Part shown: piece by piece, positions 1-49,693 of the stretch
Layout: each line of letters starts with the position of its first letter
How positions within the stretch are numbered: position 1 is the first letter of the stretch
NCBI RefSeq assembly: GCF_018881925.1
Contig: NZ_JACVPL010000002.1
Coordinates: 1-64,000, forward strand
Direction: 5' to 3'
DNA from: Polynucleobacter sp. Latsch14-2
GTDB lineage: Bacteria > Pseudomonadota > Gammaproteobacteria > Burkholderiales > Burkholderiaceae
Length of the DNA: 64,000 nt
Notes under the pieces: model-generated
Told to the model about the DNA's origin: nothing
Database searches by the model: none
The model's input: the letters and a program-made list of their open reading frames with translations, nothing else
Made by a program: the position numbers and the translations under genes

Positions 1-97
1 TCAGTTTGGCTAAGGTGTTGATAGGTCATGGCTACTTTGACTTGCAGGTCTAGAAGCTTTGGATACTAAAACATCCTTAGCCTCCTTACCTAGTTGT

Positions 98-310
98 TCA
101 AAGTTGCACTTCGTGGTTGAATCCACCTTCTTTATTTTTTTCATTTTTTTCATATAAAGAAATTATGCGGGCATGTATTTCATCTACTTCGACCGACTTC
201 AAGTAACCCTCTATGACGGTATACCCGTACTCCACAATATTATGGATATGCTGCTCAATTTCAAATTGAGCTATTTTCCTAAGAGAAACTTGGTTAATAT
301 TATTTTTCAT
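98..310 (-). pseudogene. Truncated phytanoyl-CoA dioxygenase-like N-terminus
   Basis: An ATG at 310 opens 70 codons that stop at 98. The part GYTVIEGYLKSVEVDEIHAR looks like the N-terminus of the PhyH (phytanoyl-CoA dioxygenase) family, whose members are usually 250-300 residues. The Fe(II) and 2-oxoglutarate ligands are absent. Skipping one T just before the stop continues the sequence as EQLGKEAKDVLV until another stop near position 10, which suggests a frameshifted remnant. The ATG lies inside the 3' end of the upstream beta-propeller gene (11-base overlap), so it probably belonged to the same transcript. Family assignment is tentative because so little is left; it could also be an unrelated short protein. 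Confidence 0.4.
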
Positions 311-1241
311 CAGATCCCTCCCATTCAGCATATCCAAATCCTTCTTTCCCAAAAGCGTTTCCGTTGTAAATTATCACTTTTTTGTTGCCGATATTAAAAA
401 CACTAGGATATGCAACCATTTGAGAATCCCAGCCAATCTTGGAAACATTTAGGCCCGCGAACTCATCCCGTCGAACCCATTGCCGTCCATCCTGAGAGTG
501 CGCGTATCCAATGCGATAACTATTGCTTGAATTGAATCGATAATCTTTTATGCCTCTATAGCTAAACCACATCTCATATTCCTCGCCTACAAGAATGGTC
601 GCTTTAACAATGCCGCCTTCATTTTGATCCTTGTAATCTATTGCAATGGCTCCATTTCTAATCCAATCGATACCATTTTTAGACTCTGCAAACTTTATGT
701 GATATCTTGGCTCCGGCTTTCCGTCTATAAGTTCCCATCCGGTGCAAGACGCATACCAACACCCCCATACCCCATTTAGCATCATCACTTCAGCCGTGCC
801 TATGAAGTAGGGCTCTTGCAAAGTAGTCGACAGTACAGGCCCCTCCCCTGCCTTTCTAAAATTTACCCCATCATCACTAACCGCTAACCCAATCGTATTG
901 TGATAGGGAACGGTTTTCCCAATACTCCAGCCGGTGTAATAGAGATATTTAATATCATTAATAGTTACAACCGACGAAGGCATGAGGCCAGACTCATCAA
1001 ATGCCCCCAATTTTCCAAGGTCCAGAATAGGTTCTGGATGTTCATAAAGAATTTCTTTTGGGTTTTTTGGATTAACCTCTATATAAGAAATATGAGATCG
1101 GTTTTGCGCATCCCGTGATGAATAATAAATTCTAAGGACGTTATCTGAAATTAAATCGACAGTTGGAACCTGCGCATGAGATTTAGACCATGCTCTATCC
1201 ATATTGGGGGAGTATATAAGCCCTTTTTTTACCCATGTCAT
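300..1241 (-). CDS. Beta-propeller, glycosidase-like protein (GH43/GH32 superfamily)
   Basis: The 313-residue protein carries repeated propeller-blade strands such as KYLYYTGW, VWGCWYASC, YEMWFSYRG and KKVIIYNGN, typical of the five-bladed GH43/GH32/GH68 fold. There is no signal peptide, so it is predicted cytoplasmic, which fits nucleotide-sugar or lipid-linked-sugar chemistry better than polysaccharide degradation. I cannot place the catalytic carboxylates with certainty. The ATG at 1241 shares one base with the stop of the upstream acyltransferase gene (TGATG junction); a GTG one codon earlier is possible. It belongs to the AT-rich 98-4340 operon. Its substrate is unknown. Confidence 0.6.
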   Translation of the reverse strand: MTWVKKGLIYSPNMDRAWSKSHAQVPTVDLISDNVLRIYYSSRDAQNRSHISYIEVNPKNPKEILYEHPEPILDLGKLGAFDESGLMPSSVVTINDIKYLYYTGWSIGKTVPYHNTIGLAVSDDGVNFRKAGEGPVLSTTLQEPYFIGTAEVMMLNGVWGCWYASCTGWELIDGKPEPRYHIKFAESKNGIDWIRNGAIAIDYKDQNEGGIVKATILVGEEYEMWFSYRGIKDYRFNSSNSYRIGYAHSQDGRQWVRRDEFAGLNVSKIGWDSQMVAYPSVFNIGNKKVIIYNGNAFGKEGFGYAEWEGSDEK

Positions 1242-1900
1242 CACATGCCCCTTAGTCGATTGCTGGGTACCTTAGAAATTTCAGATTTTGCTCCGGGATA
1301 CACTCCAAACTCTTTAGTATTTGACCCAATCAAAGCTCCAGCACCAACGTAAGTAGAGGCGGCCAAATTTACCCCATCTACTACTGTGGAATTCACGCCA
1401 AGATAACAATTATTAGCAATTGTTACGTGACCTGATATAACGACATGAGATGAAATAAAACAATGATCTTTTATTGAGCTGTGATGACCCAAGTGATTAC
1501 CGCTCCAGAGAATAGTATTGTCCCCAATGCTAGTAAAGGGCTGAATAACATTATTTTCAAAAATAAAGCAATTTTCGCCTACCGGTGTTCCATAGTAAGT
1601 AGCCCTTGTACTTATATACGATATAAACTGATAACCTTTGGACTTAGCTTCCTTATAAACCGACTCTCTAAGGTAGTTCATTCGCAAAGGGCTTAACGGG
1701 GCAAAAAATTTAAAATCAGTTGGCGGGTAAAGATCTTGAACCGACTCGAATGGAATAACAGGCAACCCCTTAAATTCAGATAAATTTAAATATTTTTCGT
1801 GGACCGTGAAGGCTGCGACCTCGTGCTCAGTGTCCAACCCCAAATAAAAATGAGCCAAATCTGCAAAATCCTGAACCCCAAATATAACTACCTTAGACAT
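1241..1900 (-). CDS. Sugar O-/N-acyltransferase, NeuD/PglD type
   Basis: A 219-residue protein of the left-handed beta-helix acyltransferase family. The N-terminus (MSKVVIFGVQDFADLAHFYL) looks like the small Rossmann-like sugar-binding domain of NeuD/PglD proteins. From about residue 105 hexapeptide-like repeats follow (IGDNTILWSGNHLGHHSSI, HVTIANNCYLGVNSTVVDGV). The histidine cluster NHLGHHS is where the family's catalytic histidine sits. It probably acetylates or formylates an amino sugar made by the DegT aminotransferase encoded upstream. The stop overlaps the start of the propeller gene by one base. The acyl donor and sugar cannot be read from sequence. Confidence 0.75.
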   Translation of the reverse strand: MSKVVIFGVQDFADLAHFYLGLDTEHEVAAFTVHEKYLNLSEFKGLPVIPFESVQDLYPPTDFKFFAPLSPLRMNYLRESVYKEAKSKGYQFISYISTRATYYGTPVGENCFIFENNVIQPFTSIGDNTILWSGNHLGHHSSIKDHCFISSHVVISGHVTIANNCYLGVNSTVVDGVNLAASTYVGAGALIGSNTKEFGVYPGAKSEISKVPSNRLRGM

Positions 1901-1915
1901 TCTTATTTACTCACT

Positions 1916-2539
1916 TCAAGGATAAACGTAAACAGTATATTCATATAAGCCATAGTCATTACGGATTACAAAATTTCTAGAAATAGACTGAGTGAGAAAA
2001 CTAGCTAGCATGTCTAGTGGCAAGTGAAACAAATCCTCCCTCTCCCAATCGACTTGCTTTGACATTACATTAAATGCAAAACCTATTGTTGTTTTTTGGG
2101 TCATCCTTATAAGAACCGACTTCATGAAATTAAACATTTCATCAAAACTTAACGTCTTTTTAATCGTAAAAACCCCATTAAAAATCACATAATCAAATAA
2201 TGGTAGATCGCAGTGATCAGACAGCACATCAAGGCAAAAATATTTATTTTCAGGATATTTCTTTGTGGAGATATCTATAAAATTTCTCGAAATATCTAAT
2301 CCTGCATATTCAATCTTAGCCAGTTCATGATCAACTATATATTGGTAAAGACCAGAAGTCCCACATCCAAAATCTAAAAGGGAAACTTTATTTTCCCGAG
2401 TATCGCGCCGAACCAGATCAAGCATAATTTGATAGCGCTTATACATATCTTGCTCATTAGGCCAATCCAAACCCCGATGCGTATCGCCATATACTTCAAG
2501 GCATTTATCGTAGTGTCCTGCAATTTCTAAGTAACTCAT
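1916..2539 (-). CDS. Class I SAM-dependent methyltransferase
   Basis: This 207-residue protein contains a clear SAM-binding motif I (SLLDFGCGTSGLYQYI, about residues 53-68), followed by EYAGLDISRNFID (motif II acidic residue). The C-terminal half is not strongly conserved with any subfamily I recognise. Its ATG overlaps the stop of the WbqC gene by four bases (ATGA), so translation is probably coupled. Context in a glycan cassette suggests methylation of a sugar or of a sugar-linked group; that target is inferred. Confidence 0.75.
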   Translation of the reverse strand: MSYLEIAGHYDKCLEVYGDTHRGLDWPNEQDMYKRYQIMLDLVRRDTRENKVSLLDFGCGTSGLYQYIVDHELAKIEYAGLDISRNFIDISTKKYPENKYFCLDVLSDHCDLPLFDYVIFNGVFTIKKTLSFDEMFNFMKSVLIRMTQKTTIGFAFNVMSKQVDWEREDLFHLPLDMLASFLTQSISRNFVIRNDYGLYEYTVYVYP

Positions 2540-3225
2540 GCATTAATCATTTCTTTGATATTTTCGCAGGGTACATGCATCATCAAGTCAATAATTGATA
2601 GTGCTGGCTCAAAAGCTACGGAGAAGTTTTTATACTCAGCTATATTGGGTTTAATAAAGCTCAATTCAATTCCCTGGTTTTTAAAAAAATTCCTATCATA
2701 TAAGTTATTACCTCCAGGTAAATTAATATACTCAGCTGCCCCTTCCTTAAGGCAGATATCCAAGATTCTGTCTTGACCTGTTAAATGCTGATTTTCATAT
2801 AAGCCAGAACTCTGCACGACTGTTGTCTTGATATCCAAGAATTTCATTACATCTAGCACGCTTAATTTAGCGATCTCAGAAATTTTATCAAGGTCACTTA
2901 AAAACAACCTACTTTCTAGAATTGGATAAGCCTCAGAAAAAAATGGAGCCTTTTTATATGACTCCTTAATTGATCGCTCTAGCTTTAGTAGCAATTTTGA
3001 ATCTTCGCTGATGTCGATTTCTTCAATTTTTTTATTTTGGCTAGCCTGTTTCAGTGCTAAGCTAAAGTAACTTACGCTACCTGAAAAAATTAATCGATTT
3101 CTATTAATCCAACCCTTATTGATAAAATTTACATCATCAAGAAAGATAAATTTATCGACCGAGTTAATTAACTGGAAATACCCTATATAAGGAAATAAAT
3201 AAGGTTGCATAATTGCGAGTTTCAA
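2536..3225 (-). CDS. WbqC family protein
   Basis: The 229-residue protein begins MKLAIMQPYLFPYIGYFQLI and continues with DDVNFINKGWINRNRL, the defining motifs of the WbqC family, and has a later INLPGGNNLY. WbqC proteins are common in O-antigen and capsule loci and are often found next to DegT aminotransferases, but their biochemical role is not settled. Here the gene overlaps by four bases both the upstream aminotransferase gene and the downstream methyltransferase gene, so the three are almost certainly co-translated and likely act on one product. Confidence 0.85.
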   Translation of the reverse strand: MKLAIMQPYLFPYIGYFQLINSVDKFIFLDDVNFINKGWINRNRLIFSGSVSYFSLALKQASQNKKIEEIDISEDSKLLLKLERSIKESYKKAPFFSEAYPILESRLFLSDLDKISEIAKLSVLDVMKFLDIKTTVVQSSGLYENQHLTGQDRILDICLKEGAAEYINLPGGNNLYDRNFFKNQGIELSFIKPNIAEYKNFSVAFEPALSIIDLMMHVPCENIKEMINA

Positions 3226-4340
3226 GATTTGCCATCCTTGTTAATCACATTAACAATTTTTTTAATCTCGCCATTTTCCAAGTCAGGATAAATTGGCAGA
3301 CATAATACTTTTTCCGATGCATCTAAAGCATTTAATAAATTTTTTGAATTGGAAGAATTTAAATTTTTATACGTTGGAAATTGGCTAATCAATGGATAAA
3401 AATAGCGTCTAGCGTAAATATTACAATCTTTTAACTTTTGATAAAGCTCATCTCTAGTTAAGGGGTAATCCTGTTCAACCAATATCGGAAAGTAGGAGTA
3501 ATTCGCAACTTTTTTACCCGTATCTTCAAGACACTTAATTCCCACAACATCTTTCAAAAGAGACCGATAGAGTGTATCGACTTTTTTACGCCCATCTAAT
3601 GCTGCATCAATATGATTTAATTGAACCAATCCAAATGCCGCATTCACCTCACTCATCTTTCCGTTAATTCCTGCAACATCCACGGTAACCTCATCCACAA
3701 AGCCAAAGTTTTTCAGTTGATCAATGTGGCGCTTCGTTTTGGCATCCGGGCAAACAATAGCCCCACCCTCAAAAGTATTAAATACTTTTGTTGCATGAAA
3801 ACTTAACACTGACAAATCACCATGGTTCAATACACTCCCACAATGACAATCTACTCCAAAAGCATGCGCTGCATCATAAATTACCTTTAAGTTATGACGA
3901 TCTGCAATTTCTTGGATTGCTTCCACATTACAAGGATGTCCATAGCAATGTACCGGCATGATGGCCGTGGTTTTAGATGTGATTGCGGCTTCAATTTTTG
4001 ACGGATCTAAATTTAAAGTATTGGGATCAATATCAACAAAAACGGGCTCAATTCCATTCCAAAGAAGCGAATGGGCTGTAGCCACAAAAGAGTAAGGGGT
4101 GGTAATAACCTCCCCTTTGATTTTTAAAGCCTGCAATGCAGTAATAAGTGCAATCGTGCCATTATTAAATAAGGCAATGTGATTAACACCTAGATACTCA
4201 CACAATGCTTTTTCTAATTGCTGATGAAACGGTCCACCGTTCGTGAGCGTTTTGTTTTCCCAAATCCGCTCTAAATAGGCAGTAAATTCTTCCAAAGGCG
4301 GAAGAAATGGTTGGGTCACATAAATTGGCTTATCGCTCAT
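3222..4340 (-). CDS. DegT/DnrJ/EryC1/StrS PLP-dependent sugar aminotransferase
   Basis: A 372-residue member of the sugar aminotransferase family. The PLP lysine lies in SFHATKVFNTFEGGA, a hallmark of the family. Other recognisable parts are LFNNGTIALITALQAL near residue 57, where the cofactor phosphate binds, and the PVHCYGHP loop. The enzyme transfers an amino group to a keto nucleotide sugar. The starting keto sugar is not evident, because no matching dehydratase is adjacent; the gmd or rmlB genes elsewhere in the window are possible sources. It is the first gene of the AT-rich operon, and the drop in G+C coincides with its 5' side. Confidence 0.85.
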   Translation of the reverse strand: MSDKPIYVTQPFLPPLEEFTAYLERIWENKTLTNGGPFHQQLEKALCEYLGVNHIALFNNGTIALITALQALKIKGEVITTPYSFVATAHSLLWNGIEPVFVDIDPNTLNLDPSKIEAAITSKTTAIMPVHCYGHPCNVEAIQEIADRHNLKVIYDAAHAFGVDCHCGSVLNHGDLSVLSFHATKVFNTFEGGAIVCPDAKTKRHIDQLKNFGFVDEVTVDVAGINGKMSEVNAAFGLVQLNHIDAALDGRKKVDTLYRSLLKDVVGIKCLEDTGKKVANYSYFPILVEQDYPLTRDELYQKLKDCNIYARRYFYPLISQFPTYKNLNSSNSKNLLNALDASEKVLCLPIYPDLENGEIKKIVNVINKDGKS

Positions 4341-4453: not shown

Positions 4454-5614
4454 TCACTTGGCACCACCGCTTTTGATGTGAAGCCATACTCGCCCACCTA
4501 ACAGCGCTAAGAGCATCAAGAAGAACGCCGCCGCCAATCCTCCGGCGGTCGACTTGAGCATGCCTTTTTTACTCGCGATTGGGGCAGTGTTGGCCTCTAA
4601 ACCCTTGGTAAAGCGCACCTGGATAGCGAGCAATTGGCTATGCAGCTGATCGAGTATTTCTTGGCCGTTGGCATCACCCTTAGCTAATTTGCTGCGCAAA
4701 GAGCCTTCGATTGCTAATAGCTGATCAACGAGTGCTAAACCATCAAAGGTCTGGTCTTGTAGCGGTATGGCTTGTTCGATAAAGGCTTTGATGAGGCTAA
4801 TTTGCTCTACACGTTTTTGTAGTCTGGCCAGGTTTTCTTTTGAGGCGTTGATGTCGTTATTGACCGCCACAATTTGGGTTGCTAGTGGGAGGTACTTGGC
4901 TCCCGAGTCTTTGGGGTCAACCACTTGTCCGCTGACATTGGCGCCGCCGGGGAAGCGCTTCTGCAGCTCCTCTAAAGACTTGGCGCGCTCTTGCTGGTAG
5001 CCCATCTCGATTTGGGTGCTGGTGATTTTTTGCTGCAGCTCCGCTACGGTGCTAACCGTTTGGCTCTCGTAGCCATTGAGCATAGGGCGGATCTGCAGGT
5101 AGGCACTACCTGAGCGTAAAAATTTTGCGCTTGCTCGGACATTGACAATTGATTGCTCCTTAGAGGAACCGCTGGCGGTCAAGGTGAGATTGAGGATGGT
5201 GGTCGAAGCCGCGTCCAAGTCCTTGCTAATTCCAGCTAGGTCTTTGGTGTCCGCTTTGGAGAGCGCATAACTGGGTAGTACGTTTTTTTGCCACCACTGC
5301 TCGTTGCTCATGGCTTTATAGAGGGACGCTTGGTCCTGCGGGGCTTTATTTTCTTCGACGATTTGAGCGGCCAAGTTTGGCAGGCTCTTTTGCAGCATCT
5401 TCCAGGAGACGAGGTCCAGGGCGTAGCTATTATTATTATTATTATTTAATAAAACATACTCGGCTGAGTAACTGCCTAAGGTCAACCAGCCTGCAAGGCC
5501 CAATACAGCACCCACGATGCTTGCCGCAGCGAGTTTTTTCCAGGCCCCAGTCAGAAAATTGACGATATCTAAGAGGGAGATTTCATTTTCGGATGCGACT
5601 TCTTGGGATGACAT
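4454..5614 (-). CDS. Wzz-type chain-length determinant (polysaccharide co-polymerase)
   Basis: The 386-residue protein has the Wzz layout: an N-terminal membrane segment (about residues 30-50, LAAASIVGAVLGLAGWLTLG), a long periplasmic region rich in Gln, Leu and Lys likely to form coiled coil, and a C-terminal membrane segment (AAAFFLMLLALLGG) before a short basic tail. Such proteins set O-antigen or capsule length in the inner membrane. A run of six Asn encoded by AAT repeats follows the first membrane segment. It lies downstream of the ligase-like gene with a 115-base gap in which a minus-strand TATAAT occurs at 5660-5665, so it may have its own promoter. Its G+C is much higher than that of the next operon. 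Confidence 0.75.
   Translation of the reverse strand: MSSQEVASENEISLLDIVNFLTGAWKKLAAASIVGAVLGLAGWLTLGSYSAEYVLLNNNNNNSYALDLVSWKMLQKSLPNLAAQIVEENKAPQDQASLYKAMSNEQWWQKNVLPSYALSKADTKDLAGISKDLDAASTTILNLTLTASGSSKEQSIVNVRASAKFLRSGSAYLQIRPMLNGYESQTVSTVAELQQKITSTQIEMGYQQERAKSLEELQKRFPGGANVSGQVVDPKDSGAKYLPLATQIVAVNNDINASKENLARLQKRVEQISLIKAFIEQAIPLQDQTFDGLALVDQLLAIEGSLRSKLAKGDANGQEILDQLHSQLLAIQVRFTKGLEANTAPIASKKGMLKSTAGGLAAAFFLMLLALLGGRVWLHIKSGGAK
5429..5446 (-). repeat. AAT trinucleotide microsatellite in the wzz-like gene
   Basis: Six consecutive ATT triplets on the plus strand read as six AAT (Asn) codons in the minus-strand wzz-like gene. Gain or loss of units would keep the reading frame but change the length of the linker just after the first membrane segment. 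Confidence 0.9.
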
Positions 5615-8122: not shown

Positions 8123-9265
8123 TTAGTTTTCTTTACCAACTGCAACGCTAAAGCCATGCTTACTAAGTAAAGCATGTTGTTTGGCTTGGTCTAAGTCGTT
8201 AGCCACCATCTCGACGATCATTTGATCTAGAGTGATTTCTGGAACCCAGCCCAGTTTTGTTTTTGCTTTAGTCGGATCACCCAAGAGTGTTTCCACTTCT
8301 GTAGGACGGTAGTAGCGCGGATCAATTTGCACGATCACATCCCCTACTTTTAAGGCTGGTGCTTTATCACCCTCAATGTTGGCTACGATCGCTTTTTCAT
8401 TCTCGGCAGTGCCTTCAAACTTTAGGGTGATACCTAGCTGTTTGGCACTGCGGATAATAAATTCACGGACAGTGAACTGCACACCTGTAGCAATCACAAA
8501 ATCATCGGGTTTATCTTGCTGGAGCATTAGCCACTGCATGCGTACATAGTCTTTGGCATGACCCCAATCACGCAAGGCATCAATATTACCCATGAAGAGA
8601 CACTTCTCTAATCCCTGGGAGATATTTGCTAACCCACGGGTGACCTTACGGGTGACAAAAGTCTCGCCACGACGCTTAGATTCATGGTTAAAGAGGATGC
8701 CGTTACAGGCATACATCCCATAAGCTTCACGGTAGTTCACGGTAATCCAGTAGGCATACATCTTGGCTACGGCGTAAGGGCTTCTTGGGTAGAACGGTGT
8801 GGTTTCCTTTTGAGGGATTTCTTGCACTAAACCATAGAGCTCAGAAGTTGAAGCTTGGTAGAAGCGGGTCTTTTTTTCCAGACCCAAAATACGAATGGCT
8901 TCTAACATTCTTAAGGGGCCCATGGCATCAACGTCAGCCGTGTACTCAGGAGATTCAAAAGAAACGGCTACGTGAGACTGCGCACCCAAGTTGTAGATTT
9001 CATCTGGCTGACACTCTTGGATGATGCGCACCAAGTTGCTGGTATCGGTTAGATCACCATAATGCAAAATTAAATCAGGGTGATTGACATGGGGATCTTG
9101 ATAGAGGTGATCGATACGCTCGGTATTAAAAGAAGAGGCACGACGCTTAATGCCGTGAACGATATAACCTTTTTCCAGCAAGAACTCAGCAAGGTAAGAA
9201 CCATCTTGGCCTGTTATGCCAGTGATTAACGCGACTTTTTGCGGATTCGTTTTATTGCTCGTCAT
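8123..9265 (-). CDS. gmd: GDP-mannose 4,6-dehydratase
   Basis: A 380-residue enzyme with the NAD(P) motif [20 protein letters not shown], the STSELYG and YAVAKMYA catalytic motifs and the [17 protein letters not shown] segment specific to Gmd. The C-terminus has [20 protein letters not shown] and ends with the tail found in the long, E. coli-type Gmd class. It dehydrates GDP-D-mannose to the 4-keto-6-deoxy sugar for Fcl. It sits between manC and fcl, in pathway order. A shorter paralogue lies at 23676-24647. Confidence 0.95.
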
Positions 9266-23675: not shown

Positions 23676-24647
23676 TTGGCGGCAAAAAAAGCATTAATTA
23701 TTGGCATCACTGGTCAAGATGGTGCTTACTTAGCAAAATACCTCCTCGATAAAGGGTATGAAGTAACCGGATCATCGCGTGATGTGATGGCATCCTCCTT
23801 TGCCAATCTTCAAACTCTAGGCATTCGCGATAAGGTTAAGCTGGTTTCAGTATCGATTAATGACTTTCGCAGCGTCTTTAATGCGATTCAGTCTTTTGAT
23901 CCTGACGAAATTTACAATCTTGCTGGGCAAACTTCAGTTGGCCTCTCCTTCGATCAGCCCGTAGAGGCAATTGAAAGCATCGCTATTGGCACACTCAATA
24001 TCCTTGAGGTCATTCGCTTACAAAATAAGTCAATTCGCTTTTATAACGCTGGCTCAAGCGAATGCTTTGGTGACACCGGCAACATACCAGCAAACGAACA
24101 TACCCCTTTTGCGCCACGGAGCCCTTATGCCGTTGCCAAATCTACCGCTAAATGGCTGATTAATAGTTATCGCGAGTCTTACGGTCTTTATGCCTGCACG
24201 GGCATTTTGTTTAATCATGAATCCCCATTGCGGCCAGAGCGATTTGTTACTCAAAAAATTATTGCGGGTGCCGCGAAAATTAAAGCAGGTCAATTAAGCA
24301 AATTGCAATTAGGTAATTTAGAGATTTCCCGTGACTGGGGTTGGGCGCCAGAGTATGTTCAAGCAATGTGGCTCATGATGCAATTGGATAAGCCAGATGA
24401 TTTTGTTATTGCTACCGGTAGACAAGAATCTCTCAAGTACTTTGTAGCCAAAGCATTTGAGTATTTTGATTTAGATTGGCAAAAATACGTTGAGATTGAG
24501 CCCAGCTTTTTCAGACCAAATGAAATAGTCTCCAGCATTGGCAATCCTGAAAAAGCCATTAAATCCTTGGGTTGGTCTAAACCCACGGATGTAGATGGCG
24601 TCATCAAAATGATGTGCGCTGCACAAGCTCAGAAACATCAAAAGTAA
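23676..24647 (+). CDS. GDP-mannose 4,6-dehydratase, short class
   Basis: The 323-residue SDR enzyme has ALIIGITGQDGAYLAKYLLD, AGSSECFG, YAVAKSTAKW and LFNHESPLRPERFVTQKI, which place it with GDP-mannose dehydratases. It lacks the long C-terminal tail of the gmd at 8123-9265 and has the size of the Pseudomonas A-band (D-rhamnose pathway) class. No reductase partner (rmd) is nearby. It starts with TTG, one base after the adk stop and without a visible Shine-Dalgarno; no ATG is available before the Rossmann motif, so translation probably depends on coupling to adk. Product could be GDP-4-keto-6-deoxymannose for a separate glycan. Confidence 0.8.
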   Translation: MAAKKALIIGITGQDGAYLAKYLLDKGYEVTGSSRDVMASSFANLQTLGIRDKVKLVSVSINDFRSVFNAIQSFDPDEIYNLAGQTSVGLSFDQPVEAIESIAIGTLNILEVIRLQNKSIRFYNAGSSECFGDTGNIPANEHTPFAPRSPYAVAKSTAKWLINSYRESYGLYACTGILFNHESPLRPERFVTQKIIAGAAKIKAGQLSKLQLGNLEISRDWGWAPEYVQAMWLMMQLDKPDDFVIATGRQESLKYFVAKAFEYFDLDWQKYVEIEPSFFRPNEIVSSIGNPEKAIKSLGWSKPTDVDGVIKMMCAAQAQKHQK

Positions 24648-48631: not shown

Positions 48632-49693
48632 TTAGTGATATTGCTTTTGCAGCCAGTCACGATAAGAGCCACTGACAACGCCCTCAACCCACTGAGGGTT
48701 ATCGAGGTACCACTGAACAGTCTTACGAATTCCTGTTTCGAAGGTTTCGGCAGGCTTCCAGCCCAACTCGCGTTCTATCTTGCTAGCATCAATGGCATAG
48801 CGGCGATCATGTCCAGGACGATCTTTCACGAAGGTGATTTGAGCTGCATAGGACTTCCCATCGGCGCGAGGTCTTAACTGATCCAAAATAGAACAGATGG
48901 TTTTAACCACATCCAGATTGGCTTTTTCATTCCAGCCACCAATGTTATAAGTTTCGCCTAAGCTACCTCTAGCCAATACTTCGCGAATTGCTGAACAATG
49001 ATCTCCCACATAAAGCCAATCTCGCACTTGCTGACCATCGCCATAAATAGGCAAGGGCTTACCATCCAAGGCATTCAATATCACAAGTGGAATCAATTTC
49101 TCAGGGAAGTGATAAGGGCCATAGTTATTAGAGCAATTGGTTGTCACTACTGGGAAACCATAGGTATGGAACCAAGCCCGCACTAAATGATCTGACGCCG
49201 CCTTAGAGGCTGAATAGGGGCTATTGGGCTCATAAGAATTTTTTTCAGTGAAGGCGGGATCGGATGCAGAGAGTGATCCATAGACTTCATCCGTGGACAC
49301 ATGATGAAAGCGAAATTGTTCTTTGGCTTGACCCTCTAGCGCATTCCAATACTCCCGCGCGCATTCAAGCAAATTAAAGGTGCCAACGATATTGGTTTGT
49401 ACAAAATCTGCAGGTCCATGAATAGACCGATCTACATGGCTTTCCGCGGCGAAATTAACAATGGCTCGAGGCTTGTGCTCGGCAAGTAACTGCTTAACTA
49501 GTCCCTGATCACCAATATCACCATGGATAAATTGATGACGAGAATCATTTTTCAGGCACTCTAATGTGGCTAAATTGCCTGCATAAGTTAATTTATCAAG
49601 ATTAATGATACCTTCGGCACTTGGATTGGCGAGCCAATCTAAAACAAAATTACCACCGATAAATCCTGCGCCGCCAGTAATCAAAATCATCAA
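48632..49693 (-). CDS. rfbB: dTDP-glucose 4,6-dehydratase
   Basis: The 353-residue SDR has [43 protein letters not shown] and [15 protein letters not shown], the RmlB signatures. It forms dTDP-4-keto-6-deoxyglucose. It heads the rfbBDAC-waaC operon. The 5' side abuts a glycosyltransferase-like gene seven bases away on the same strand. Confidence 0.95.

What the first reader, a model, noticed from the sequence alone, without database searches (positions are those of the whole stretch)
98..4340. AT-rich acquired cassette for an unusual sugar with WbqC and a cytoplasmic propeller protein
Six minus-strand genes are joined by very small overlaps or gaps. Hand counts of 60-base samples give about 30% G+C at 241-300 and 3241-3300, against 62% at 4921-4980 and about 42% at 24001-24060. 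The drop is sharp at the DegT gene's upstream side. DegT, WbqC, methyltransferase, acyltransferase and a glycosidase-fold protein without signal peptide look like one pathway for a modified amino sugar or sugar-linked group. WbqC has no settled function, and a cytoplasmic GH43/GH32-like protein in this position is unexpected.
Basis: partly seen in the sequence, partly recalled or inferred. Interest (0 to 1): 0.55.

Follow-up and report, generated by a model that had tools for sequence, protein, structure and literature searches.

The report
Acquired cassette for aminoacylated surface sugar
This bacterium carries a foreign gene set that most likely builds an amino sugar with an amino acid attached for its surface coat, and it suggests a job (joining amino acid to sugar) for a widespread protein family, WbqC, whose function was unknown.

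Summary
The AT-rich block is real: 37.4% G+C against 45.7% in the rest of the window, below all 1109 overlapping windows of equal size elsewhere. It holds five genes, not six: DegT (VioA-like), WbqC, methyltransferase, NeuD-type acyltransferase, five-bladed propeller. The sixth, 98-352, is the 5' end of a PhyH gene cut by an insertion sequence. The same order occurs in 15 of 80 loci fetched by the propeller: 14 Bacteroidota, one Undibacterium. Main result: the WbqC model matches BshC, the putative cysteine:amino-sugar ligase of bacillithiol synthesis (Z 14.3, 220 of 229 residues; next Z 8.0). E. coli O121, whose glycan carries N-acetylglycyl on Qui4N (review passages), has DegT-WbqC-GNAT; E. 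coli O7 and O116-type loci have VioA without WbqC. I infer that WbqC joins an amino acid to the amino sugar made by DegT and that the acyltransferase caps it. Against it: no sequence-profile similarity to BshC. The propeller lacks the GH130 EDPR motif (0 of 60); its reaction stays open.

The parts
1..127 (.). end of a multi-copy insertion sequence (IS30-type by recalled motif, not searched), reaching the contig edge
   Evidence: repeated at 98-100% identity in nine other places listed, at or near contig ends; 3-base target duplication GAA at window 128-130 matches C25:127-129, the exact IS border being my choice
128..310 (-). 5' part of a PhyH (2-oxoglutarate/Fe dioxygenase) gene split by the insertion sequence; start ATG at 310
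   Evidence: remainder at G000:C25:97-840, PhyH 53.4 bits against cut-off 22; joined flanks stay open for 298 codons; the short N-terminal piece alone matches PhyH neighbours only weakly (best E 0.008)
300..1241 (-). five-bladed beta-propeller protein, no signal peptide seen in the model, 313 aa
   Evidence: model pLDDT 96.6; beta-1,2-mannobiose phosphorylase 7fip Z 29.7, rmsd 2.3, 270 aligned; Pfam GH130/GH32 hits below cut-off
1241..1900 (-). NeuD/PglD/VioB-type hexapeptide N-acyltransferase
   Evidence: TIGR03570 138.2 bits, cut-off 160.8; UDP-N-acetylbacillosamine and perosamine N-acetyltransferases among the solved relatives
1916..2539 (-). class I SAM methyltransferase, small
   Evidence: Methyltransf_12 32.8 bits against cut-off 30
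2536..3225 (-). WbqC family protein, proposed amino acid:amino-sugar ligase
   Evidence: PF08889 214 bits against 21.3; model pLDDT 91.9; BshC 4wbd Z 14.3
3222..4340 (-). DegT/VioA-like sugar 4-aminotransferase
   Evidence: PF01041 355 bits; 70.7% identical to a gene annotated vioA in Burkholderia glumae; 63% to the E. coli O121 enzyme
48683..49687 (-). RmlB, dTDP-glucose 4,6-dehydratase: source of the dTDP-4-keto-6-deoxyglucose that a VioA-like enzyme would use
   Evidence: TIGR01181 503-504 bits against cut-off 365

Best explanation
The block is a horizontally acquired module inside a surface-polysaccharide locus. It makes an activated 4-amino-4,6-dideoxy-hexose (most likely dTDP-Qui4N) whose amine carries an amino acid that is itself capped. 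Steps: RmlB gives the 4-keto sugar; the DegT (VioA-like) enzyme aminates C4; WbqC, a small BshC-like HUP-fold protein, joins the carboxyl of an amino acid to that amine; the NeuD-type enzyme acylates, or the methyltransferase methylates, the new alpha-amine or a hydroxyl; PhyH oxygenases hydroxylate the product. This is the same logic as mycothiol and bacillithiol: amino sugar, amino-acid ligase, amine cap. Shown here: the genes, their recurring order, the fold match, the E. coli gene-glycan fit. Inferred: the reactions, their order, the identity of the amino acid, ATP use. Open: what the propeller does; it is most often next to NeuD, so I place it in the capping half.
For: Fold: WbqC model against BshC 4wbd Z 14.3, rmsd 3.2, 220 of 229 residues, above the next rows (class I tRNA synthetases Z 8.0 and below, PPAT 7.0, pantoate-beta-alanine ligase 6.4). 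A review calls BshC the putative ligase that presumably adds Cys to the amino sugar GlcN-Mal, and describes MshC ligation followed by MshD acetylation in mycothiol (PMC4360819 passages). Gene-glycan fit: the E. coli O121 cluster, seen from galF to gnd, has rfbB, rfbA, DegT, WbqC, GNAT; the review lists N-acetylglycyl on Qui4N with the O121 paper as its reference 147 (PMC3210612 passages). Loci with a VioA-type gene and no WbqC annotated within 5 kb: O7, O39 (its vioA is flagged frameshifted), two strains with an O116 flippase, O49-type, ET210; the same review lists plain acetyl with the O116 paper as reference 146. Context: among loci fetched by the propeller, WbqC at 140 bits or more to the window protein has DegT as the next called ORF upstream in 32 of 40, lower-scoring WbqC in 2 of 24. 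In a sample not chosen by the propeller, 10 of the 10 loci with WbqC over 150 bits, and 1 of the other 20, have DegT upstream on the same strand within about 1.5 kb. Identity matrices covary: DegT-WbqC r 0.60, propeller-NeuD r 0.71, 0 of 500 permutations each, 38 loci.
Against: No sequence link to BshC: hhalign probability 0.3%; the WbqC profile finds no PDB chain below E 1. Foldseek alone gave no match at E 0.001 or better; its best row was E 0.19. The aligner's own note says that models without a clear Foldseek match typically have a best Z of 7-8, but five mostly helical ones reached 14; WbqC is mixed alpha/beta. WbqC is less than half the length of BshC. BshC activity had not been shown in vitro by 2015. 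The gene-glycan fit rests on two structures that I saw cited in one review (O121, O116) plus annotation, and most serogroup labels come from wzx/wzy names. Another enzyme type may do this: VimA, a putative N-acetyltransferase, is proposed to transfer Ser or Gly in Porphyromonas and Tannerella (PMC7468200 passages); O121 also has a gene annotated serine O-acetyltransferase. Covariation may reflect shared descent alone, and in the second class of 15 loci the cross pair NeuD-WbqC (0.81) is nearly as high as the expected pairs (0.87, 0.84). GDP-4-keto-6-deoxymannose from Gmd (window 8123-9265, named by eye) is an alternative substrate for DegT.
Confidence: 0.6

Rival explanations
1. WbqC is a HUP-fold nucleotidyltransferase or adenylating enzyme for another acyl group (for example a hydroxy acid), and the amino acid in O121 is transferred by the GNAT protein, as proposed for VimA.
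For: the lower structural rows are tRNA synthetases and adenylyltransferases; VimA proposal (PMC7468200 passages)
Against: the BshC match is above those rows and covers 220 of 229 residues; N-acetylglycyl needs two acyl steps, and in O121 DegT is followed by WbqC and then GNAT
Confidence: 0.25
2. The propeller is a GH130-like phosphorylase or glycosidase that acts on a mannoside or other glycoside in the cytoplasm (trimming or salvage).
For: closest fold is beta-1,2-mannobiose phosphorylase, Z 29.7; genes that I read as GDP-mannose genes lie next to the cassette
Against: EDPR, which I recall as the GH130 catalytic-Asp motif, is absent in 60 of 60 family members; scores are below the Pfam and NCBIfam cut-offs; it is mostly next to NeuD and occurs both with Wzm/Wzt-like and with GT2/EamA contexts
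Confidence: 0.2
3. The block is ordinary serotype variation: DegT makes GDP-perosamine or another amino sugar, NeuD acetylates it, and WbqC and the propeller are accessory with no shared pathway.
For: perosamine synthases are among the solved relatives; perosamine N-acetyltransferase hit; Gmd-like gene close by; most loci fetched by WbqC lack a propeller nearby (25 of 30)
Against: DegT is closer to an annotated VioA (70.7%), and 2po3, a DesI-type enzyme by recall, tops the PDB list; the five genes recur in exact order in 15 of 80 loci, though 14 of these are Bacteroidota
Confidence: 0.2

Closest known systems
E. coli O121 O-antigen locus (rfbB-rfbA-DegT-WbqC-GNAT), glycan with N-acetylglycyl-Qui4N
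   Same: DegT 63% and WbqC 39% identical, same adjacent order
   Different: GNAT instead of NeuD; by annotation no methyltransferase, propeller or PhyH between galF and gnd
Bernardetia plasmid cassette (NZ_CP147018.1)
   Same: DegT-WbqC-MT-NeuD-propeller in the same order; propeller 54% identical
   Different: DegT only 46% identical; preceded by an ABC-transporter ATP-binding protein; no PhyH directly after
Dickeya zeae WH1 flagellar island (methyltransferase, glycosylase, WbqC, DegT between fliA and fliC)
   Same: similar gene kinds named in PMC9650423 (passage)
   Different: sequences not compared here; sits in a flagellar, not an O-antigen, locus
BshC (bacillithiol) and MshC-MshD (mycothiol)
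   Same: proposed logic: amino acid ligated to an amino sugar, amine then capped; BshC fold shared by the model
   Different: no sequence-profile similarity; WbqC is 229 aa against about 540; acts in a surface-glycan locus
GH130 beta-1,2-mannobiose phosphorylase
   Same: five-bladed propeller, Z 29.7
   Different: no EDPR motif in 60 of 60; below family cut-offs

Membership tests
WbqC (PF08889) | profile score over the curated cut-off | tested here: met
   214 bits against 21.3
BshC (PF10079) | overall fold of the core | tested here: met
   4wbd Z 14.3, rmsd 3.2, 220 of 229 aligned, predicted model only
BshC (PF10079) | sequence-profile similarity | tested here: not met
   hhalign probability 0.3% against 12 BshC sequences
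BshC (PF10079) | coiled-coil dimer domain and length near 540 | tested here: not met
   WbqC is 229 aa, of which 220 align to BshC, against 541 for 4wbd; the domain is named in a review passage
BshC (PF10079) | amino acid:amino-sugar ligase activity | not testable with these tools
   needs enzyme assay
VioA-type 4-aminotransferase | close relative of annotated VioA; PLP lysine motif | tested here: met
   70.7% to a gene annotated vioA; FHATK motif visible in the protein, its role recalled; under the cut-off of the NCBIfam models listed
NeuD/PglD/VioB acyltransferase (TIGR03570) | score over the curated cut-off | tested here: inconclusive
   138.2 bits against 160.8, full-length match 3-204
GH130 phosphorylase (PF04041, NF052550) | score over cut-off | tested here: not met
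   17.8 against 26 bits; 46.9 against 450
GH130 phosphorylase (PF04041, NF052550) | EDPR catalytic-Asp motif (recalled) | tested here: not met
   0 of 60 family members hold EDPR or DPR
PhyH dioxygenase (PF05721) | score over cut-off and HxD...H iron motif (recalled) | tested here: met
   C25 part 53.4 bits against 22; HVD and a later HH seen in the reading; the gene is split in this strain

The most novel reading that the evidence does not exclude
WbqC proteins are a second, small class of BshC-like amino acid:amino-sugar ligases that decorate surface glycans in many bacteria and at least one archaeal MAG, and the propeller is a new use of the GH130-type scaffold: a cytoplasmic enzyme without the GH130 motif that acts, with its NeuD-type partner, on the aminoacyl group or its cap rather than on a glycosidic bond.
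Probability: 0.25. Interest if true: 0.8.

Novelty: new variant of a known kind. Interest (0 to 1): 0.6.

Why it matters
N-acylaminoacyl amino sugars are known in bacterial glycans (N-acetylglycyl-, N-acetyl-D-alanyl- and 3-hydroxybutyryl-alanyl-Qui4N; PMC3210612 passages). Apart from VimA, a proposed transferase, my searches showed no enzyme named for that step. If WbqC is the ligase, a widespread Pfam family gets a function, glycan chemistry becomes more predictable from genomes, and thiol-cofactor and surface-glycan synthesis share one strategy. WbqC itself is common: 52 of 300 genomes sampled from the order.

Tried and rejected
Tried without result: the first alignment (A1) was too diverse for a genome scan. 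WbqC by sequence in the PDB: none with the single protein up to E 1, and with the profile only two rows at E 1. Pfam on 54 WbqC members: PF08889 for all; the other families shown touch 1-3 members (25 of 32 families shown). hhalign WbqC against BshC: nothing. Propeller against GH130 by sequence: two stretches aligned with different offsets, so I drew nothing from the register. The 325-aa 'hypothetical' in E. coli O123/O186 is not the propeller (no blastp hit to it).

Rejected or set aside: 98-352 as a gene; GDP-perosamine as first choice; propeller as a plain glycosidase. A glutaminyl-cyclase-like role for the propeller came to mind (other five-bladed propellers do that chemistry, recalled) and was not tested.

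Weaknesses: the 80 loci are the best 80 of 307 and were fetched by the propeller, so its own count means nothing; many are cut by contig ends. The structure alignments used 54 of 63 available WbqC rows and 60 of 75 propeller rows, picked by hand without a written rule. L012-L014 were left out. The 30 WbqC loci are the best-scoring of about 60 places and reach only about 1.5 kb each way. I looked at 9 E. coli regions with a VioA-like gene (L147-L155); one search had 171 matching records, 60 listed. The bacterial genus is unnamed; size and G+C suggest Polynucleobacter (recalled, not tested).

Papers: PMC3210612, PMC4732683, PMC4360819, PMC12719100, PMC2922099, PMC7555982, PMC7468200, PMC5532660, PMC7848895, PMC5507510, PMC9650423 and PMC10434189 were seen as passages only; all others only as search listings. 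Searches on which absence rests: in an open-licence library that lacks most subscription papers.
Full report
WHAT IS THERE. The window is the first 64 kb of contig C22 of a 2.34-Mb draft genome in 50 contigs. Bases 98-4340 have 37.4% G+C; the rest of the window has 45.7%, and no 4243-base window among 1109 overlapping ones elsewhere falls below 41.8%. Five genes on the minus strand are packed with overlaps or a 15-base gap: DegT 3222-4340, WbqC 2536-3225, methyltransferase 1916-2539, NeuD-type acyltransferase 1241-1900, propeller 300-1241. Next to them, still on the minus strand, are proteins that I read by eye as Wzz-like and Wzy/ligase-like (no Pfam match over a cut-off), then Fcl, Gmd and ManC (also by eye).

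THE SIXTH GENE. Window 1-127 recurs in nine other listed places at or near contig ends. Contig C25 begins with the opposite end of such an element and carries positions 102-204 of the PhyH profile, a second PhyH gene and a PglK/MsbA-like ABC transporter (best model PglK, 266 bits, cut-off 1000). The three bases GAA flank both ends (window 128-130, C25:127-129), and the joined flanks stay open for 298 codons. C25 ends in another copy; its GTT matches the GTT at the start of C18, which holds glycosyltransferase-like proteins, a Wzy-like membrane protein and an acetyltransferase-like protein (names by eye). So the likely order is window, IS, C25, IS, C18: one surface-glycan locus. PhyH-1 is split in this strain; PhyH-2 looks intact.

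WHERE ELSE IT OCCURS. Bernardetia, a bacteroidote, has DegT-WbqC-MT-NeuD-propeller in the same order on a plasmid. A scan of genome contigs with a propeller alignment found 307 relatives; the best 80 were kept. Of these 80, 64 have WbqC, 64 NeuD, 64 DegT and 45 a methyltransferase like the window's within the fetched stretch; 51 have DegT, WbqC, NeuD and propeller; 15 have the exact five-gene order, 14 of them Bacteroidota and one Undibacterium; 20 have PhyH right after the propeller (PhyH clusters named). A second architecture is WbqC-GT2-MT-NeuD-propeller (14 of 80), often with a 124-aa EamA protein. Many loci of the first kind lie just after proteins that I read as Wzm/Wzt exporters (clusters c11 in 17 and c10 in 20 loci; Pfam not run on them; the Bernardetia member is annotated as an ABC-transporter ATP-binding protein). 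In Rhizobium and Tateyamaria the order is DegT-WbqC-propeller-propeller-GNAT-MT. In the propeller tree phyla are mixed (Fulvivirga beside Aliiglaciecola; Verrucomicrobiota beside Undibacterium and Methylobacter). In the window's genus 5 of 186 genomes have any propeller, own one included. This supports lateral transfer.

SEEN FROM WbqC. A search of 300 genomes of the order found WbqC in 52. In 30 loci from it, DegT is upstream on the same strand in 11: all 10 with WbqC over 150 bits to the window protein, and 1 of the other 20; a propeller is within about 1.5 kb in 5. So DegT is the steady partner of this WbqC subfamily, and the propeller an optional one.

TWO MODULES? In 38 loci with the window-like WbqC (140 bits or more), identity matrices of propeller and NeuD correlate at 0.71 and those of WbqC and DegT at 0.60, higher than the three other pairs tested (0.24-0.43); 0-2 of 500 permutations reach each. 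In the 15 loci of the second class the pattern is weaker: 0.87 and 0.84 for those pairs, but 0.81 for NeuD-WbqC. Shared descent alone could give such correlations. Adjacency agrees with the split: 56 NeuD-propeller and 33 DegT-WbqC pairs in 80 loci. I read this, cautiously, as an amination-ligation half and a capping half.

WbqC. The model has mean pLDDT 91.9. Foldseek gave nothing significant. Re-aligning its 1000 best rows gave BshC 4wbd at Z 14.3, rmsd 3.2 over 220 of 229 residues; then tyrosyl-tRNA synthetase Z 8.0 over 143, and other HUP-type enzymes. The tool notes that typical best Z for models without a clear match is 7-8, but up to 14 for mostly helical ones. If the alignment starts ungapped at residue 86 of 4wbd, WbqC Gln7 falls at or next to the invariant Gln of BshC (L136 Q93); this is my inference, since no residue alignment is printed. 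Profile-profile comparison found no similarity, so I do not file WbqC as a BshC. The fold says what it may work like. In a review, BshC is the putative ligase that presumably adds cysteine to GlcN-malate, not yet shown in vitro in 2015, with citrate in the canonical site and ADP in a second pocket; MshC ligates and MshD acetylates in mycothiol (PMC4360819 passages). N-methylation of the cysteinyl amine by NmbA is a further parallel (PMC12719100 passages).

GENE AND GLYCAN. E. coli O121 has, between galF and gnd, rfbB, rfbA, DegT, WbqC and GNAT among 14 genes. Its DegT is 63% and its WbqC 39% identical to the window proteins. A review states that Qui4N occurs with formyl, acetyl (reference 146, E. 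coli O116), N-acetylglycyl (reference 147, E. coli O121), 3-hydroxybutyryl-alanyl and other groups (PMC3210612 passages). Among the other E. coli loci with a VioA-type gene that I looked at, O7, O39 (vioA flagged frameshifted), two strains with an O116 flippase, one O49-type and ET210 show no WbqC within 5 kb; two O123/O186-type strains do. The O116, O49 and O123/O186 labels rest on wzx/wzy names. Another paper also ties VioA and VioB to O39, O49 and O116 (PMC4732683 passage). So WbqC is present where an amino acid is reported and absent in the type reported to have plain acetyl. It is a small sample.

DegT AND SUBSTRATE. The best solved relative is 2po3 and the best NCBIfam model DesI (299 bits, under its cut-off of 650); a Burkholderia glumae gene annotated vioA is 70.7% identical. 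RmlB is at 48683-49687. dTDP-Qui4N is therefore my first choice; GDP-perosamine remains possible because a Gmd-like gene is close by.

PROPELLER. The model has pLDDT 96.6 and its first strand begins at residue 2, so I see no signal peptide. Closest folds are GH130 phosphorylases (Z 29.7, rmsd 2.3, 270 residues). R43, D82, G85, P144, R229 and D272 are among the invariant residues in 60 sequences; H22, D/E83, E143 and E208 are nearly so. By secondary structure several lie at the starts of the inner strands, so the cavity looks kept and probably binds something (inference). EDPR is absent in all 60. The O121 locus has no propeller, so the protein would be an added step.

VERDICT. An acquired amino-sugar cassette (high confidence), with a good case that WbqC is the amino acid:amino-sugar ligase (0.6), and an unsolved propeller.

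Noticed in passing
G000 contigs C9, C11, C13, C17, C22 far end, C23, C25, C41, C50 (loci L104-L119): The same insertion-sequence end sits at or near many contig ends (nine other places listed; ten for the opposite end), so the element probably causes a good part of the breaks in this draft.
   Followed up: partly
L198 (same genus, G145:C1:294000-307000): A same-genus genome has a different version: DegT, GT2, WbqC, NeuD, PhyH, propeller, PhyH with Wzm/Wzt-like genes nearby; the genus may swap such cassettes.
   Followed up: partly
L051: A Lokiarchaeota MAG contig carries DegT, WbqC, NeuD and propeller matches.
   Followed up: no
L053: A contig labelled Bifidobacterium breve MAG holds a propeller match without a propeller among the called ORFs; possibly frameshifted, and perhaps mis-binned.
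   Followed up: no
L148 and L152: E. coli O123/O186-type loci have an unnamed protein (looks like a DegT-like protein by eye) and a MaoC dehydratase beside DegT-WbqC-GNAT.
   Followed up: partly
L156: Burkholderia glumae plasmid pBGF3 has vioA near flagellin and fliD genes.
   Followed up: no
WbqC members with 44-105 bits to the window protein: A second WbqC subfamily has QSNYIPWKGYFD-like instead of QPYLFPYIGYFQL-like starts and is often followed by a GT2 gene rather than preceded by DegT.
   Followed up: partly
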